DNA of 64,000 nt from Opisthocomus hoazin (Eukaryota; Chordata; Aves; Opisthocomiformes; Opisthocomidae): assembly GCF_030867145.1 (NCBI RefSeq), contig NC_134415.1:72879300-72943299 (forward strand). The letters are read 5' to 3'. A program made the translations under genes and the position numbers. The notes beneath the pieces were generated by a model that did no database searches, had not been told where the DNA came from, and was given only the letters and a program-made list of their open reading frames with translations. Below, one piece after another: positions 42,005 to 55,840 of the stretch (position 1 is the stretch's first letter; the number at the start of each line of letters is the position of its first letter).

Positions 42005-42625
42005 GTAGTGATGCCGTGAAAAGCCGGAATTGAAGACTCAATAGTCGGAAGACTATTAAGCAGGTATTCTTTATTACAGCGCCGGGCACACGGGGGACCT
42101 CTCCTCAAAACGTGTGCACCGAAAGGACACACTTACTTGGTATTTATTCTATGTTAACATACACATTCATTACATTTGCAAGAAATGCTTATCATAGTTT
42201 TACTGAGAACTCATTAGTATATGGTAATGTCCGTCGCGCATGTTTGTTTGGCGTCTCTCGGTGATCGGCGGGGTCTTCAGATTATCCTGCAGCCTCCTTA
42301 TCTCTGTAGTCTGCATACCTGTTCTCCCAAGGCCCAGGTGCCTACTGGGATTATTCAGGAGTCCCTTATCTTGCAGCTGTCCCATCCCAATTATTCACAA
42401 AGAACCAAGACTTGTTTTGGTTGTGCAATGATTCTGACCATCTGAAGTGATAACATCCCCTACATGTTACATTTGTTACATTTACAGTTATTAGTAGAGA
42501 AACAACAGTTACAGTGATTCCTTTTCCTGCCTTCAGTTACAAAAAAAAATCTGCAAATGGGATCAGGAAGAAATTAAGAAGCTACCAGTAATAAATAAGA
42601 TGTACTGCCACATTTGTGGCAGTAG
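42005..42625 (-). mobile_element. Solo LTR (613 bp) related to the provirus LTR, with 4-bp duplication
   Basis: The LTR spans 42009-42621. It begins TG and ends CA on the plus strand and is flanked by GTAG at 42005-42008 and 42622-42625. It shares blocks with the provirus LTRs in the same order: 'ttaagcaggtattctttatt', 'gcgccgggcacacggggg', 'cctccttatctctgtag' and 'tcccaattatt'. The rest differs by many substitutions and indels, so it belongs to an older or different subfamily. The polyadenylation signal AATAAA reads on the minus strand at 42070-42075. No gag, pol or env sequence adjoins it, so it is a product of LTR-LTR recombination. The 4-bp duplication fits a gammaretrovirus-type integrase. 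Confidence 0.85.
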
Positions 42626-49629: not shown

Positions 49630-49633
49630 GCAG
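49630..49633. repeat. Target-site duplication, left copy (GCAG)
   Basis: GCAG immediately precedes the left LTR and is repeated immediately after the right LTR at 55837-55840. Four bases is the duplication length typical of gammaretroviral integrases. A matching pair means the provirus ends are original and not the product of recombination between two elements. Confidence 0.9.
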
Positions 49634-49694
49634 TGATTCGAAGATCCGGTAAGAAAAACCTAACAGTACAATGTATACTGTTAAGCAGGTATTC

Positions 49695-49700
49695 TTTATT
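49695..49700 (-). terminator. LTR polyadenylation signal AATAAA (3' LTR)
   Basis: TTTATT on the plus strand is AATAAA in the provirus orientation. It lies in R, shortly before the presumed cleavage site near 49675-49685. The same signal is present in the right LTR at 55179-55184 and in the solo LTR at 42070-42075. Confidence 0.8.
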
Positions 49701-49765
49701 GCGGCGCCGGGCACACGGGGGATTTCTCCTCCAAACGTGCGCGCCAGACACCCTGTTGCTTCAGG

Positions 49766-49772
49766 TTAAATA
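49766..49772 (-). promoter_or_regulatory. Candidate LTR TATA-like box (TATTTAA)
   Basis: TATTTAA on the minus strand lies about 66 bp upstream of AATAAA. That spacing fits a start site near 49740 and a short R region of the kind common in gammaretroviral LTRs. The copy in the active-position 5' LTR is at 55250-55256. It is assigned from spacing only. An alternative AT-rich box, AATATAATG, lies slightly farther upstream. Confidence 0.4.
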
Positions 49773-50352
49773 CAATCACACAGGTAATTATTCATTATAT
49801 TTCTAGGAACTAATTAGCATATGTAAATATCTTTCACGCATGTCTGCTAGTATCTTTGGGTGGTCTTCGGGGGTCCCAAGATGAAGGCCCATCCTCTTCA
49901 TCACGCTGTTCACTGATTGACATTTGTTTTCTGCGCAAACTCAGTTCTAGCATTACGTATATCATGTCCTTCAGGTTGTTTTGCTCCAGTCTTGTTGCTC
50001 TCTTGGTGCCTCCTTATCTCTGTAGCTTAGCGCATTTGCCCTCCCAAGGCTGAGCTGTCTGGAGTAGAGTTATTTAGGAGTCTCTTTTATCCCACAATTA
50101 TCCCAATTATTTGCTGAAAATCAAGACCACTTTTGTTTCACTTAATTATTTTGTCTAACGACTAAGTGATAGCTTGTGCCCATGTCCTTCCACTACATTC
50201 CTTAATGAGAAAACAGGGATTAGTGTAACAGTTATATTGTTAGATCACTATGCATGCAGAAATACAAGTTACAATACTAAAGACTACTAAAAACTAGAGA
50301 ATATTAAGGCCTTTTTGTTGTAGTTTCACATTTCTTACAATCCTCTCTATCA

Positions 50353-50369
50353 TTCCCCCCTTTTCTTTT
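50353..50369 (-). other. Polypurine tract (plus-strand DNA primer site)
   Basis: The minus strand reads AAAAGAAAAGGGGGGAA directly abutting the U3 start TGATAGAG. This is the RNase H-resistant primer for plus-strand synthesis. Its position fixes the LTR boundary and confirms the orientation. Confidence 0.9.
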
Positions 50370-50410
50370 AAGACTTTTGCTTCTTTTAGATCAAAAAGTC
50401 TTAGTAATCA

Positions 50411-50626
50411 TTAGATCAGTCTATTCTTACATTGCCAGCATAATTGATTACAGCACTTGCAGCACTGAATCATTATGCAGGCCAAAACACATACACCTAC
50501 TATCACAAGAGCTAGGAAAAATAGGTTCTTTAACCAGGATAAATTTGGTAGCCATGAGGTGAGTTTATTCCACATTTCCTCAAATCCGTAGGAAGTATCA
50601 TCTTTAACTACTTCGTGTAATATTCT
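50411..50626 (-). pseudogene. env: env remnant: transmembrane anchor and cytoplasmic tail
   Basis: An open frame of about 71 codons ends in TAA at 50411-50413 and lies in a different phase from RT. It encodes a juxtamembrane stretch rich in W (LTSWLPNLSWLKN), a 19-residue hydrophobic span (LFFLALVIVGVCVLACIMI, 50468-50524), and an 18-residue tail with a CCKCC cluster of the kind palmitoylated in retroviral TM proteins. This is the C-terminal end of a TM subunit. The surface subunit, fusion peptide and most of TM are absent. The frame has no start codon of its own at a sensible place, and its upstream edge overlaps the end of the pol frame where the deletion joined them. It is probably not expressed as a protein. 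Confidence 0.85.
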
Positions 50627-52590
50627 GGTGTTAAATAAATCTTACCTTGTTCACTTGCTCCCAAATCTTTTACTAATTTCATATCTTCTTTTGAATATTT
50701 AAATTCCATTTCTGTATCTACGAGTTTACCGTCTGGTACCAGTGCCAAGGTTTTTACAAAACTTCTTTCTGCTGCCCTTTTAGCCTCTTGATCTGCTAGT
50801 TTATTTCCCAGTTCCTGTTCAGTGTTACCTTTTTGATGTCCTCTGCAATGCATTATTGCCACTTGTTCTGGTAGATTTATAGCATCCAAAAGCTGTAAGA
50901 TTTCTTTTGCATGTTTGATCTGTTTACCTTGAGCTGTGAGCAGTCCTCGTTCTTTCCACAATGCTCCATGAGCATGGACGACCCCGAAGGCGTATTTGGA
51001 GTCTGTCCAAATATTTATTTTCTTTCCTTTCGCCAATTCTAAGGCTCTGGTTAAAGTGATTATCTCTGCCTTTTGAGCAGACGTACCTGCAGGTAAAGGT
51101 TCTGCCTCGATTACCTTGTGTGCGGTGGTTACTGCATACCCTGCTTTACGAGCTCCGTCTTTTATGAAGCTGCTTCCATCGGTGAACCAGGAGTCCTCTG
51201 TGCTTTCCAACGGTTCCTCCTTTAAATCAGGTCTGCTGGAATAGACTGTTTCAATAGTCTCCAAGCAGTCGTGCGTTAGGGGTTCCATAGTGGCGGAATC
51301 TTTACTAAGAAAAGATGCTGGATTTACAATGTTAGCTGTCACAATATTAACATCATCTTGTTCCACCAAAATAGCCTGGTACTTTAGGAATCGGGATGGT
51401 GAGAGCCAATGGTCCCCTTTTTGTTCCAATACTGCAGAAACTGTGTGTGAGACTATGACTGTCATTTTCTGGCCCATAGTGAACTTACGAGCTTGTTGAA
51501 TGTTAAGGACAACTGCTGCCACAGCTCGCAGACACCCAGGCCATCCTTTGCTTACCTCATCCAATTGTTTGGAGAAATATGCCACTGCTCTCTTGTGCGG
51601 CCCCAGCTGTTGAGCGAGCACTCCCAGGGCAATGCCTTGTCTCTCGTGAGAAAACAGCCAAAAGGGTTTTAGAACATTTGGAAGTCCAAGAGCCGGGGCT
51701 CTCACAAGTTCCTTTTTTAACTGTTCAAAAGCCCTTTTTGCATCTCCGGTCCAAATTAGGTATCTGGCATTATTTTTCAACAGTTCATATAAGGGCTTTA
51801 CCATTAGTCCATAATTATATATCCATAGTCTACACCATCCTGTCATTCCTAAAAAGGTTCTTAATTCTTTTACCGTTTGTGGTTCTGGAGTCCGGCAGAT
51901 TGCTTCTTTCCTCTCTCTTCCCAGTTCTCGTTGTCCTCTTGAGATTTTGAGTCCGAGGTAAGTCACTTGTTGTTGAATCATCTGAGCTTTCTGTTGAGAA
52001 ACTCGATAACCATTAAGTCCCAGAAAATTAAGAAGACTCACTGTCCATTTTCTGCAATCCCCCTCTGTTTCTGCAGCGATGAGGAGATCATCGACAGATT
52101 GTAACCAAGTCCCCTTTTGTGTCGGAGGATTCCACTTTTCGAGATCCCGAGCTAGCTGATTTCCAAAGATGGTAGGGCTATTTTTGAAACCTTGGGGTAA
52201 CACTGTCCAGGTTAACTGGGTTTTTCGTCCAGAATCTGGATTTTCCCATTCAAAAGCGAATAGGTTCTGACTGTTTGAGGCCAGAGGTAAACAGAAAAAG
52301 GCATCTTTTAAATCCAGTACAGTAAACCATCCCTGGCTATCTTCCAGTTTATTCAACAAGGTATAGGGATTAGCTACTACTGGGTAGAGATCTTCCACGA
52401 TTTTATTAATTGCCCTCAAATCTTGTACTAACCTGTAACTTTTCCCATCCGACTTTTTCACTGGCAAAATGGGGGTGTTGTATTCAGATTCACATTCTAT
52501 TAACAATCCAAAATTTATAAAACTATCAATTATTTTCTTAATTCCTCTTCGGTCCTCTAGCTTAAGGGGGTATTGTTTGATCTTAACTGG
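50608..52590 (-). pseudogene. pol: pol: reverse transcriptase-RNase H, truncated at the start of integrase
   Basis: This is an uninterrupted frame of about 660 codons. Reading from 52590 it opens with the gamma-type RT start PVKIKQYPLK, then NTPILPVKK, RLVQDLRAIN, TVLDLKDAFF (first catalytic Asp) and LPQGFKNSPTIF. The active-site loop reads QSVDDLLIA (codons at 52098-52087), where retroviruses have YVDD, so the usual Tyr is Ser. RNase H follows with WFTDGSS, AEIITLTRALE, WTDSKYAF and NKLADQEAK, giving an intact D-E-D-D set, and a CRGHQKG loop. The frame then enters the first ~30 residues expected of integrase and stops at 50608-50610. The HHCC finger and the DDE core are missing. RT activity is doubtful because of the Ser substitution. 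Confidence 0.93.
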
Positions 52591-52880
52591 TCGAGCTCCA
52601 ATAGGTCTCGTCCTAGAAGGGACTTAGGGGCCCCAGGCAGGTACAAAAATCTGTGTATTCCAATGTGTTTACCTAATTTGTACTTTAATGGTTTTAGAAA
52701 ATATGCCTTTTCCGATTGGCCTGTAGCACCCACAACGGTTATAAAATCCTTATCCAAAGGCATCAGTTGTTGATTTAAAACAGAAAACGACGCACCAGTG
52801 TCTACCAAAAATTCCACATTCTGTTTCCCTAGCTTTATGTTAACCAGTGGATCCGCTAGGGTGGATTCCCCAGGTTCCCG
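52557..52880 (-). pseudogene. pro: pro: retroviral aspartic protease, frame-disconnected
   Basis: The frame carries VEFLVDTGASFSVL, with the catalytic DTGA at 52802-52791, the flap-region text TVVGATGQSEKAYFL, and the C-terminal LLGRDLLELD signature. Length and order fit a gammaretroviral protease of about 100-110 residues. It lies in a different phase from both capsid/NC and RT, and a TGA at 52881-52883 precedes it in frame. It therefore cannot be made as part of a normal Gag-Pro-Pol chain. Its frame runs past the RT start and stops at 52557. The phase change to RT falls near 52590-52610. Confidence 0.9.
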
Positions 52881-52899
52881 TCATTCAGTATCCTGTAGG

Positions 52900-53004
52900 T
52901 CAGCAACTATTCTGGGGCAGGGTGCCTTTTTTCTTCTGTGGACATTCCCTCTGCCAATGTCCGAATCCTTTACAACGAGCACACTGATTGCTTTTTAGTC
53001 TCCT
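52900..53004 (-). pseudogene. gag: gag nucleocapsid segment with one zinc knuckle
   Basis: Beyond the TAA at 53005-53007, in the same phase as capsid, the minus strand encodes a basic stretch and one CX2CX4HX4C zinc knuckle (CARCKGFGHWQREC, 52942-52983), followed by a PQKKK basic tail and TGA at 52900-52902. A single knuckle is typical of gammaretroviral nucleocapsid, which packages genomic RNA. Because a stop separates it from capsid, the element's own Gag would lack RNA-binding NC unless the stop is suppressed. Confidence 0.88.
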
Positions 53005-53934
53005 TTAATCGTAATTCCTCTTACTGTTCTCATCCCTGTTACGATACACTCGCCACGCCTCTTCCACTAGTTTCTCTAAATTCCTTACATCTGGTTCTTT
53101 AAGTCTCTGCAGCTTCTTTCTAATATCGTTAGCAGCCTGTCCTATAAATAGAGATATTAGCTGCTGTCTAGCTGCATCTGATGCTGGATCCATGGCAGTG
53201 TATTTCCGCACTGCTGTTCGTAATCTATCTAAGAATTCTGTCAGAGTTTCTGTCGGACCTTGTTTTACTTCATATAAGGCTGACCAGTTTACTGCTTTCG
53301 GGATCCCGTGTTCCAGCCCATACTGAATCCAAATACGGTATTGCTGTAACAGTCGATACTGGGTTTGATCATTAGGGTCCCACCCCGGGTCTCTAAGTGG
53401 AACATGTTGTTCCTCGGTCCCTTGTAAAGTACCTGCAGTAATTTGTGCCCTCACATGATCCCTTGCTGTTTTTAACACAATTCCTTTCTCAGTCTCTGTC
53501 ATTGCCTCTAACATCAAATCCACATCTTTCCAATCCGGATTCAAATTCTTAACTATCCATTCAAATTTCTTGGCTACCCTGCTAGGATCTTCCCTGTATT
53601 CCCTTACAGTTTCTCTCCATTTGTCTATATCTTCCATCTGGAAGGGTGTTCTTATCAGGGTTGGCCCCCCCGGCCCCATCGCCTGTCTTAAAGGGGCTTG
53701 GATGATGGGTCCCACCTTACTACGAGTCCGAGCAGTGATGGGACTTGACCCGCTAGGTGGCGCTCCGCCCTCATCAGAGGCCTCGTCCCCGTCTGCGCGG
53801 GCGGGGGTTCCCGCAGCCGACCCAGCATCAGGGAGAGGGGGGGTGACACAAAATCCTCCATACGCTCTTCTAATTTCTTCCGATTCCCTTTTGTTTTTAG
53901 ACACCTTTGCCCTATGCTGCACGCAGAACAACAC
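53005..53934 (-). pseudogene. gag: gag: spacer and p30-type capsid
   Basis: This is an open frame of about 309 codons whose listed first residue is a GTG, so it has no true start and is the continuation of gag after a frame change. It begins with a Pro/Gly/Asp-rich linker (residues ~30-95), which corresponds to the p12-like region and has no PPPY or PTAP late motif that I can see. The capsid domain follows, with PFQMEDIDKWRETVREY, the alpha-helical p30 core and a major homology region at QGPTETLTEFLDRLRTAVRK. It ends at TAA (53005-53007), just before the zinc knuckle. Family assignment is to the gammaretroviral Gag_p30 type. Confidence 0.92.
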
Positions 53935-53936
53935 CG

Positions 53937-54323
53937 CTAAAGTCTTCCCGGCTCTTTCTTTCTATCCCTTTCCAATGCCAACACAAGGGGATCCTGCGGG
54001 GCTAGATTTATACCACTTTCTTTTTGCCACTCGGGGTGATTTCGCAAAGTGAAAAACATATCGGCATATGAGACCTCATCCCATTTTCCTTCTCTTCTCA
54101 AGAACAACATTAGCTGTAGCAAAGTATTATAATCCAGGGTCCCATTCTCAGGCCACTTTGCCTCCTCATTTAACTTGTACAACGGCCACCATTGATTACA
54201 ATACTTAACTAACGTCCTTTTATTCACAATACCTCCTGGGGGTCCCCCTATCTCCTTCCAGTGTTGCAAAATACAGCCCAAGGGGCTCTTCTTCAGAATC
54301 TCTTTGCTCTGTGAAGTTCCCAT
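53937..54323 (-). pseudogene. gag: gag: N-terminal matrix, ends at a frameshift
   Basis: I chose the ATG at 54323-54321 because it gives MGTSQSKE, a good N-myristoylation signal (Gly2, Ser6), as expected of a matrix protein that targets the plasma membrane. It is followed by SPLGCILQHWKEIGG, which resembles the first matrix helix of gammaretroviruses, and WPENGTLDYNTLLQLMLFL. The frame ends at TAG 53937-53939. The capsid frame is in another phase and overlaps this point, so a one-base-type frame change lies close to 53940-53960. An in-frame extension upstream to 54368 exists but lacks the myristoylation start. Confidence 0.9.
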
Positions 54324-54797
54324 TATGCAGCACATCCACCTCTTTGTTCCCCAATCAATGTACAGCAAACCCTAACAAACAAACCTAAACAAATCCTTCT
54401 AACGCCGATAGCTCTAATTACTTAACCAAAATTCTATACTTTAAGCTAAGAGAAATAGTTACTGAACCGCGATTTTACACCAGAACGTTATACGACACTT
54501 AAAACAACTATTACAATTATCACTAGTAGTATTCCGTCGATAACAACAATGGGATAATTACTTTAAAATAAACATTCACTGTTTTCTTACGCTTTGTTCT
54601 TTACCGGTCGCTTCCCTCGCGGGAGAACAGAACCGCAGGTCAAAACTCCACACTCACCCTTGTTTCTATGTCTCATTCACACAGAGGCCTCACACACAGT
54701 CACACAATTTTCACCCGGAGTTACTGCAATCCGAACCGTTTGCCAGAACCGTAGTCAATTTCCAGAATAATGATCCATGTATCAGTCAAGACCGTGT

Positions 54798-54861
54798 CCA
54801 GTGGGGACTCAAACCCCTACAGTGGGGACTCAAACCCCCCACAGTGGGGACTCAAACCCCT
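54798..54861 (-). repeat. Three tandem ~21-bp units in the leader
   Basis: Three consecutive copies of a unit containing CAGTGGGGACTCAAACCCC (plus strand) start near 54798, 54819 and 54841. On the RNA strand each contains GGGGTTTGAGTCCCC, which folds as a 4-bp stem with a seven-base loop TTTGAGT. A fourth, separate copy at 54921-54938 reads GGGGTTCGAGTCCCC, whose loop TTCGAGT matches the tRNA T-loop consensus. Confidence 0.85.
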
Positions 54862-55065
54862 ATATACCTCTAAGGTGCTAGCAGCCCGGTATACTCTCCC
54901 TGCGTAATTAAATTACGACTTAGGGGACTCGAACCCCGTTGCTTAGTAAAAAGTAGTAAAAGAATACCTTTACTCATGGATGGTCCTTGTCTGTTCCCGC
55001 GGTGATCCAGATAAGGCGAGGAGCCCCTTCGGGAAAAGGCTCCCGAGGGCCCAAGGGGGTCCTGT

Positions 55066-55075
55066 TCTTACCGGG
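55066..55075 (-). promoter_or_regulatory. Candidate major splice donor in the leader
   Basis: The minus strand reads GACCCG|GTAAGA, with the intron starting at 55071. It is 24 nt downstream of the primer binding site and upstream of gag, as expected for a retroviral major donor that makes env mRNA. Since env is nearly gone here, spliced products would have little coding potential but could splice into flanking host sequence. Confidence 0.5.
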
Positions 55076-55094
55076 TCCCGCAGCCGAACAGAGT

Positions 55095-55114
55095 GAGTCC
55101 CATCTGGGGTGCCA
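55095..55114 (-). other. Primer binding site, tRNA-Arg(CCU) type
   Basis: Three bases after the 5' LTR the minus strand reads TGGCACCCCAGATGGGACTC. Its complement, ending CTGGGGTGCCA, matches my recollection of the 3' end of a vertebrate tRNA-Arg(CCU), including the GAGTCCC of the T arm and the CCA tail. TGG at the start and the distance to the LTR are canonical. The tRNA identity rests on memory and should be aligned to the tRNA set of the host. Confidence 0.75.
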
Positions 55115-55117
55115 AAT

Positions 55118-55836
55118 TGATTCGAAGATCCGGTAAGAAAAACCTAACAGTACAATGTATACTGTTAAGCAGGTATTCTTTATTGCGGCGCCGGGCACAC
55201 GGGGGATTTCTCCTCCAAACGTGCGCGCCAGACACCCTGTTGCTTCAGGTTAAATACAATCACACAGGTAATTATTCATTATATTTCTAGGAACTAATTA
55301 GCATATGTAAATATCTTTCACGCATGTCTGCTAGTATCTTTGGGTGGTCTTCGGGGGTCCCAAGATGAAGGCCCATCCTCTTCATCACGCTGTTCACTGA
55401 TTGACATTTGTTTTCTGCGCAAACTCAGTTCTAGCATTACGTATATCATGTCCTTCAGGTTGTTTTGCTCCAGTCTTGTTGCTCTCTTGGTGCCTCCTTA
55501 TCTCTGTAGCTTAGCGCATTTGCCCTCCCAAGGCTGAGCTGTCTGGAGTAGAGTTATTTAGGAGTCTCTTTTATCCCACAATTATCCCAATTATTTGCTG
55601 AAAATCAAGACCACTTTTGTTTCACTTAATTATTTTGTCTAACGACTAAGTGATAGCTTGTGCCCATGTCCTTCCACTACATTCCTTAATGAGAAAACAG
55701 GGATTAGTGTAACAGTTATATTGTTAGATCACTATGCATGCAGAAATACAAGTTACAATACTAAAGACTACTAAAAACTAGAGAATATTAAGGCCTTTTT
55801 GTTGTAGTTTCACATTTCTTACAATCCTCTCTATCA
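55118..55836 (-). repeat. 5' LTR of the provirus
   Basis: This 719-bp LTR appears identical to the left copy and carries the promoter in active position, reading leftward. Its U3 edge (55836) is followed by the right GCAG duplication, and its U5 edge (55118) is followed by the primer binding site. U3 faces SERINC1, whose coding start is 2.2 kb away, so enhancer elements in U3 could act on that promoter. Confidence 0.95.
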
Positions 55837-55840
55837 GCAG
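55837..55840. repeat. Target-site duplication, right copy (GCAG)
   Basis: This matches GCAG at 49630-49633 at the other end of the provirus. Confidence 0.9.

What the first reader, a model, noticed from the sequence alone, without database searches (positions are those of the whole stretch)
49634..55836. Identical LTRs around a heavily broken body: probable trans-mobilised passenger retrovirus
The two 719-bp LTRs show no difference by eye and sit in an intact GCAG duplication, so insertion was recent. Yet the body has frame changes between matrix and capsid, capsid/NC and protease, and protease and RT, stops before NC and protease, a changed RT active site and loss of integrase and env. So much damage after a recent insertion is unlikely. 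The simpler reading is that the defects predate insertion and the RNA was packaged and copied by proteins of a relative. LTR gene conversion is the alternative.
Basis: partly seen in the sequence, partly recalled or inferred. Interest (0 to 1): 0.75.

Follow-up and report, generated by a model that had tools for sequence, protein, structure and literature searches.

The report
Broken bird retrovirus copied in trans
This is a recently inserted, badly damaged endogenous retrovirus of a bird whose damage is shared with a second copy elsewhere in the same genome, which means that it was broken before it moved and was most likely copied by proteins of an intact relative, a known kind of hitchhiking seen here in unusually clear steps.

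Summary
Two LTRs identical over 719/719 bases lie in a GCAG duplication around a minus-strand gammaretrovirus-like provirus. The host genome was searchable. Another locus (C12), with a different target duplication (CTAC) and unrelated flanks, has the same 5,484-base LTR spacing and all seven lesions: two stops, two frame changes, a 220-nt protease/RT deletion, Tyr-to-Ser in the RT motif, and a 2,064-nt integrase/env deletion. The window copy has no private change in 4,765 body positions. So the defects predate insertion. A third copy (C16) shares only the Ser and the integrase/env deletion, and has gag of the longer class. That deletion junction recurs in 12 of 40 scored copies, about seven insertion sites: an established non-autonomous subfamily. 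A longer class (LTR spacing about 7.75 kb), some with open gag, pol and env frames and LTRs 0-2 bases different, is the likely helper. Correction: the stop before protease is normal for the family (30 of 30 loci). Known kind (cattle ERVK D-type, chicken EAV-HP); interest moderate.

The parts
49630..49633 (.). target-site duplication GCAG, left copy
49634..50352 (-). 3' LTR (719 bp), identical to the 5' LTR; TATA-like GATAAAA near 50091, AATAAA near 49700 (element sense)
50353..50370 (-). polypurine tract beside the 3' LTR
   Evidence: read from sequence
50414..50641 (-). remnant of env transmembrane frame (76 codons; Pfam gave no hit to this piece; assigned by its match to the env end of longer copies)
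50630..50638 (-). junction of the 2,064-nt integrase/env deletion, with 9 nt that match neither side
   Evidence: shared by 12 of 40 scored copies
50608..52623 (-). RT-RNase H open frame, 671 codons, ending just after the deletion junction
   Evidence: Pfam RVT_1, RNase_H
52096..52098 (-). RT motif codon: Ser where relatives have Tyr
52595..52600 (-). junction of a 220-nt deletion at the PR/RT border, 6 nt of overlap between the two half matches; shared only with C12 among 40 scored of 193 candidates
52557..52880 (-). protease frame, truncated by the deletion
   Evidence: Pfam RVP
52881..52883 (-). stop codon between gag and pol, normal for the family (30 of 30 loci)
52884..53004 (-). nucleocapsid region with one zinc-knuckle-like motif (read by eye); frame change in a homopolymer run near 52.93 kb
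53005..53007 (-). stop codon at the end of the capsid frame, absent in 28 of 28 other loci, present in C12
53005..53961 (-). capsid frame (318 codons)
   Evidence: Pfam Gag_p30
53830..53845 (-). frame change in a homopolymer run, shared with C12 only among 30 loci
53937..54371 (-). matrix frame (gag start at 54323), ended by a stop at 53937-53939 that 28 of 28 other loci lack and C12 has
   Evidence: Pfam Gag_MA 22.9 bits, below its cut-off of 30
54324..55117 (-). leader, with primer binding site next to the 5' LTR (tRNA-Arg-like by recall, not tested)
55118..55836 (-). 5' LTR (719 bp)
55837..55840 (.). target-site duplication GCAG, right copy

Best explanation
The element is a non-autonomous (passenger) provirus of a gammaretrovirus-like family in a bird genome. 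Its defects arose in earlier generations of the element. Its RNA, which keeps LTR, primer binding site, leader and polypurine tract, was packaged, reverse transcribed and integrated by proteins from an autonomous relative of the longer class (LTR spacing about 7.75 kb). Shown: lesions shared between independently inserted copies; recent insertion; relatives with open frames and the same or nearly the same LTR in the same genome; one recombinant between the two classes. Inferred: that those relatives supplied the proteins, and that copying went through RNA in particles rather than any DNA-level route.
For: (1) C12:5962433-5968635 has the same LTR spacing (5,484), all seven lesions and 6 substitutions in 4,765 body positions relative to the window copy, but CTAC instead of GCAG at its ends; its two 1.5-kb flanks give one 30-base match (87%, E 5e-4) in the 64-kb window. 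(2) The window copy has no private substitution: all 6 differences are on the C12 side, with C16 carrying the window state, so nothing in the window copy needs to have happened after insertion. (3) The integrase/env junction is matched over its full length by 12 of 40 scored copies that fall into about 7 insertion sites by their flanks. An element without integrase therefore inserted repeatedly. (4) C16 has the Ser codon and the integrase/env deletion but gag with 0 differences from 4 of the 5 longer copies compared over MA-p12 (474) and CA (821), and 0 and 2 from the fifth (C7); at sites that separate C2/C12 from the longer copies it follows the longer class at 22 of 22 in MA through PR and C2/C12 at 6 of 7 in RT. 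This is a passenger/helper recombinant, which implies co-packaging. (5) Gag changes private to C2/C12 are 11 nonsynonymous, 1 stop, 3 synonymous, close to a neutral expectation of about 72% nonsynonymous plus stop (binomial p 0.77): no sign of selection on this gag. (6) Of the 27 loci other than C2, C12 and C16, 6 keep gag and pol frames open as far as the loci reach; integrase and env frames are open in 4 of 4 pieces. LTRs of C7 and C17a equal the window LTR at 719 of 719, those of C8a, C40a and C16 differ at 1-2.
Against: Only one copy shares all seven lesions, so the full defect set is proven through two insertions only. No donor for the diverged gag was found (40 of 591 candidates scored; 38 of 40 at 97-98%). 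The Ser codon also occurs in a copy on C1 (0.334 Mb) that keeps integrase (346 bases aligned to the C7 integrase part, 7 mismatches) and differs at 21 of 1,061 positions downstream, so lesions did not accumulate along one simple line. C16 lacks a matching target duplication and follows the longer class, not C2/C12, at 2 of 2 sites in the env tail and at 9 of 10 in the leader. The control for point (5) is not sharp: some comparisons between other old copies are also rich in nonsynonymous changes (for example C13a against C40x, CA: 10 to 4). C17a, one of the longer copies, has a pol stop after 465 codons. No RNA, particle or population data were available.
Confidence: 0.9

Rival explanations
1. 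Post-insertion decay hidden by LTR gene conversion: the provirus is old, decayed in place, and its LTRs were made identical later.
For: Gene conversion between LTRs happens in general (recalled). Related LTRs are abundant in this genome (40 scored of 2,338 candidates).
Against: All seven lesions are present at C12, another site, and the window copy has no private substitution in the body, so no decay in place is left to hide.
Confidence: 0.02
2. The defects were made in the one reverse-transcription cycle that led to this insertion (template switches and RT errors), starting from an intact genome.
For: The 220-nt deletion has 6 nt of overlap at its junction, as template switches leave.
Against: Identical junctions and stops at two unrelated sites, and the integrase/env junction at about seven, would have to arise again each time.
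Confidence: 0.02
3. C2 and C12 share their bodies through DNA-level copying (interlocus gene conversion or segmental duplication) and not through an RNA intermediate.
For: Segmental duplication does multiply other copies here (C40 triplet and C13 groups share flanks; LTR loci L004/L005, L006/L015 and L026/L027 share flanking bases).
Against: C2 and C12 have different 4-base duplications and unrelated flanks, with identity running from LTR end to LTR end. A conversion tract would have to cover the whole 6.2 kb and stop at both ends.
Confidence: 0.05
4. Helper proteins came from an infecting (exogenous) relative or from particles of another family, not from the longer endogenous class.
For: No expression data were available; the chicken EAV-HP literature speaks of a helper virus (PMC4607243, passages seen).
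Against: The longer endogenous class includes copies with open gag, pol and env frames and the same LTR, and C16 carries its gag.
Confidence: 0.2
5. Frame changes are sequencing or assembly errors.
For: Both single-step frame changes sit in homopolymer runs, and one run varies in length among copies.
Against: They are shared by C2 and C12, while two stops, the Ser codon and two long deletions are not homopolymer events and are shared as well.
Confidence: 0.05

Closest known systems
Bovine ERVK[2-1-LTR] D-type (defective) elements mobilised by C-type (competent) ones (PMC10924933; found passages only, abstract passages among them)
   Same: Short defective copies coexist with longer competent copies of one clade, insert anew, and recombine with them, which the authors take as a sign of co-packaging.
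   Different: Different retroviral group and host; there, de novo insertions were observed and the mobilisation rate mapped; here only the record of one assembly.
Chicken EAV-HP (PMC4607243; found passages only)
   Same: Bird element with inactivating mutations whose spread is believed to need a helper virus.
   Different: EAV-HP is placed among alpharetroviruses in that paper; the element here is gammaretrovirus-like, and helper candidates lie in the same genome.
Koala recKoRV1 (PMC5696478; found passages only)
   Same: Recombinant, coding-defective provirus found at several sites that would not transpose autonomously.
   Different: Built from two different retroviral elements; here deletions and gag exchange within one family.
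Mouse ETn/MusD and VL30 (recalled; VL30 seen only as a listing)
   Same: Non-autonomous LTR elements carried by relatives.
   Different: Larger families that have lost nearly all coding sequence (recalled).

Membership tests
Non-autonomous LTR retrotransposon / trans-mobilised ERV | Lacks proteins needed for its own reverse transcription and integration | tested here: met
   Integrase absent; gag broken and PR truncated; RT motif changed
Non-autonomous LTR retrotransposon / trans-mobilised ERV | Keeps cis signals: two LTRs, PBS, PPT, leader | tested here: met
   packaging signal itself not testable, primer tRNA not tested
Non-autonomous LTR retrotransposon / trans-mobilised ERV | Same lesions at independent insertion sites | tested here: met
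   All seven in C2 and C12; integrase/env junction in 12 of 40 scored copies, about 7 sites
Non-autonomous LTR retrotransposon / trans-mobilised ERV | Autonomous partner with matching cis sequences in the same genome | tested here: inconclusive
   Longer class with the same or nearly the same LTR and open frames exists; that it is functional was not tested
Non-autonomous LTR retrotransposon / trans-mobilised ERV | Packaging and mobilisation by partner proteins observed | not testable with these tools
   No expression or particle data
Gammaretrovirus-like (class I) ERV | Gag p30, MLV-type RT/RNase H and integrase, TLV-type coat protein | tested here: met
   Pfam on window pieces and on C7 pieces for integrase and env; top PDB matches 4hkq and 5dmq are named RT/RNase H p80, with MMLV RT further down
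Gammaretrovirus-like (class I) ERV | gag and pol in one frame separated by one stop codon | tested here: met
   Stop in 30 of 30 loci; gag frame runs to it in 14 of 30; readthrough itself not testable
Gammaretrovirus-like (class I) ERV | 4-base target duplication | tested here: met
   C2, C12, C17a, C7, C8a and 15 of 30 LTR loci that look solo; C16 has no matching pair

The most novel reading that the evidence does not exclude
A still-active helper and passenger system in a bird: an integrase/env-deleted lineage that has kept inserting for a long time, refreshes its LTR and gag by swapping RNA segments with the longer class, and is probably still segregating in the population, so that it acts as a parasite of the parasite.
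Probability: 0.45. Interest if true: 0.6.

Novelty: new member of a known kind. Interest (0 to 1): 0.45.

Why it matters
It is a clean natural record of how a retroviral family breeds defective hitchhikers: one deletion carried through about seven insertions, further lesions in two of them, and a recombinant that carries the longer class's gag. With population reads the balance between competent and defective copies could be measured in a bird as it was in cattle. The mechanism itself is known.

Tried and rejected
Rejected: counting the stop before protease as damage (present in 30 of 30 loci). Rejected: topological conflict as proof that C2/C12 are themselves recombinant; the gag and RT trees can both place them between the C13/C40 copies and the longer class, so only C16 is clearly recombinant. 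Rejected: a straight order of lesions, because the Ser codon is also in a copy on C1 that keeps integrase. Led nowhere: IMG/VR search for RT relatives (9 pattern matches, none confirmed); Rfam and ARAGORN on the window (0 hits); the right LTR ends of C2b, C13c-e and two of the three C40 copies were not at the expected place; C2b has no RT at the expected place; a tRNA-gene search to test the primer binding site did not complete, so the tRNA-Arg reading rests on recall. In one search the rows for copies whose loci do not reach a position are unreliable; only the C16 rows, which do, were used. In one search the LTR difference counts of reverse-oriented loci (shown as about 535) are meaningless; one search repeats twelve loci in the right orientation. 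G-to-A changes make up 5 of 6 C12-private body differences, too few to interpret. Trees used alignment columns fixed to window positions, so insertions relative to the window were dropped. The estimate of nonsense changes assumes 4.0 kb of coding sequence and 5% nonsense.

Full report
What is there. The element runs on the minus strand from 55836 to 49634. Its LTRs are identical over 719 of 719 bases, the target duplication is GCAG, and PBS-like and polypurine sequences are in place. Pieces of gag, protease and RT/RNase H match Pfam retroviral families when searched apart; the matrix piece scores below its cut-off and the env piece has no hit. Of the 120 RT relatives listed (1051 found), each that carries an organism name is a bird. 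The top solved structures are named RT/RNase H p80, and MMLV RT follows. The host genome is held without a name: 1.48 Gb, 415 contigs.

Which defects are real. Thirty loci around the protease/RT region were compared (L031-L060; 40 of 193 candidates had been scored and 30 cut out): the window copy (C2), one at C12, one at C16 and 27 others. C2 and C12, and none of the 28 others, have a stop in the matrix frame, a stop at the end of capsid, frame changes near 53.84 kb and 52.93 kb (both in homopolymer runs), and a 220-nt deletion between protease and RT. The RT motif has Ser in C2, C12 and C16 and Tyr in the other 27. The integrase/env gap is 2,064 nt against 4 of 4 longer copies (C7, C17a, C8a, C40a). 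The stop before protease is in 30 of 30 loci, and in 14 of 30 the gag frame runs straight to it: it is the usual gag/pol stop of this family. RT/RNase H is still one 671-codon frame.

Defects before insertion. C12 has the same spacing of LTRs (5,484), all seven lesions, 0 differences from C2 in the leader, MA, CA, NC and PR pieces and 6 substitutions in the 4,765-base body, every one on the C12 side. Its LTRs differ from each other at 1 of 719 positions. Its target duplication is CTAC, and its flanks share only a 30-base weak match with the window. Two separate insertions therefore carry one set of lesions. With no change in 1,438 LTR positions the 95% upper age is about 206,000 generations, and about 48,000 if the 4,765 body positions are added, using the mean bird rate of 1.01e-8 per site per generation (PMC9995274, found passages seen).

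An older passenger lineage. A search with the integrase/env junction (281 bases) scored 40 of 292 candidates; 12 match over its full length and 28 match one side only. By flanking sequence the 12 make about seven insertion sites: C2, C12, C16, C2 at 10.07 Mb, three C40 copies with one shared left flank, three C13 copies near 11.8-11.9 Mb (two with the same left flank, the third alike at 11 of 14 bases), and a C13 pair near 13.8-13.95 Mb. Complete 4-base duplications were seen for C2, C12, C40 (15.73 Mb) and the C13 pair; C16 has none; the right ends of the others were not found where expected. Tyr is present in the C13 pair, in C13 at 11.90 Mb and in C40 at 17.51 Mb, so the deletion is not tied to the Ser change. 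Ser also occurs in a copy on C1 (0.334 Mb) that keeps integrase (346 bases aligned to the C7 integrase part with 7 mismatches) and differs at 21 of 1,061 positions downstream. Lesions have thus been shuffled between copies.

Recombination with the longer class. At sites where C2 and C12 differ from all five longer copies compared, C16 follows the longer class at 22 of 22 in MA, CA, NC and PR (9, 11, 1, 1) and at 9 of 10 in the leader, but C2/C12 at 6 of 7 in RT (51340-52590; seven longer copies compared there), and again the longer class at 2 of 2 in the env tail. Trees agree: C16 sits inside the longer class in gag and with C2/C12 in RT. Template switching between two RNAs in one particle is the ordinary cause (recalled), and the cattle study read such recombination as a sign of co-packaging (PMC10924933).

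Helper candidates. Of the 27 loci other than C2, C12 and C16, 6 keep the gag frame (from about codon 27) to the gag/pol stop and the pol frame open for the 595 codons to the end of the locus; the rest have a stop in one or both, C17a among them (pol stop after 465 codons). In 4 of 4 longer copies the 3' pol frame continues open through integrase and a 463-codon frame follows; on the one piece run through Pfam (C7) these match integrase and TLV_coat models. LTRs of C7 and C17a equal the window LTR. I did not test any for function and single out none.

How it works, with likelihoods. Shown: pre-existing defects, repeated insertion of an integrase-free element, one recombinant with the longer class. 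Likely (0.75 in my judgement): the endogenous longer class supplied Gag, RT and integrase. Open: whether copying stayed inside germ cells or passed through infection.

Known or new. Non-autonomous ERVs carried by relatives are well known (cattle ERVK; koala recKoRV1; chicken EAV-HP believed to need a helper; mouse examples recalled). The literature searches on this subject covered an open-access library only; no title in their listings names this family, which is no proof that no study exists.

Noticed in passing
window 42052-42422: Weak LTR-like matches (69 bases at 88% and 134 at 69%) suggest an old related LTR remnant in the same window.
   Followed up: no
host contig C40, about 4.8-18.1 Mb (L046-L060): Fifteen of the fifteen loci cut out there share a stop 42 codons into the pol frame, and three copies of C40 share one left flank: an apparently amplified region rich in this family, perhaps a W chromosome (not tested; a W refugium for ERVs is described in PMC8310711, search listing only).
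   Followed up: partly
host LTR loci L001-L030: Fifteen of 30 LTR loci show the same four bases on both sides and no closely matching body, i.e. they look like solo LTRs; some share flanking bases with another (L004/L005, L006/L015 inverted, L026/L027) (read by eye).
   Followed up: partly
C17:12102683-12124962 and C8:6900186-6914456: LTRs at spacings 7746/6069/7746 and 5800/7752 suggest tandem proviral arrays sharing LTRs.
   Followed up: no
C12 copy (L003, L013, L032): Five of six body differences private to C12 are G to A in element sense, and so is its one LTR difference; too few to call hypermutation.
   Followed up: no
C1:333900-335900 (L088-L090): A copy with the Ser RT motif and the linked variant at 52106 but about 2% divergence downstream and integrase kept.
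   Followed up: partly
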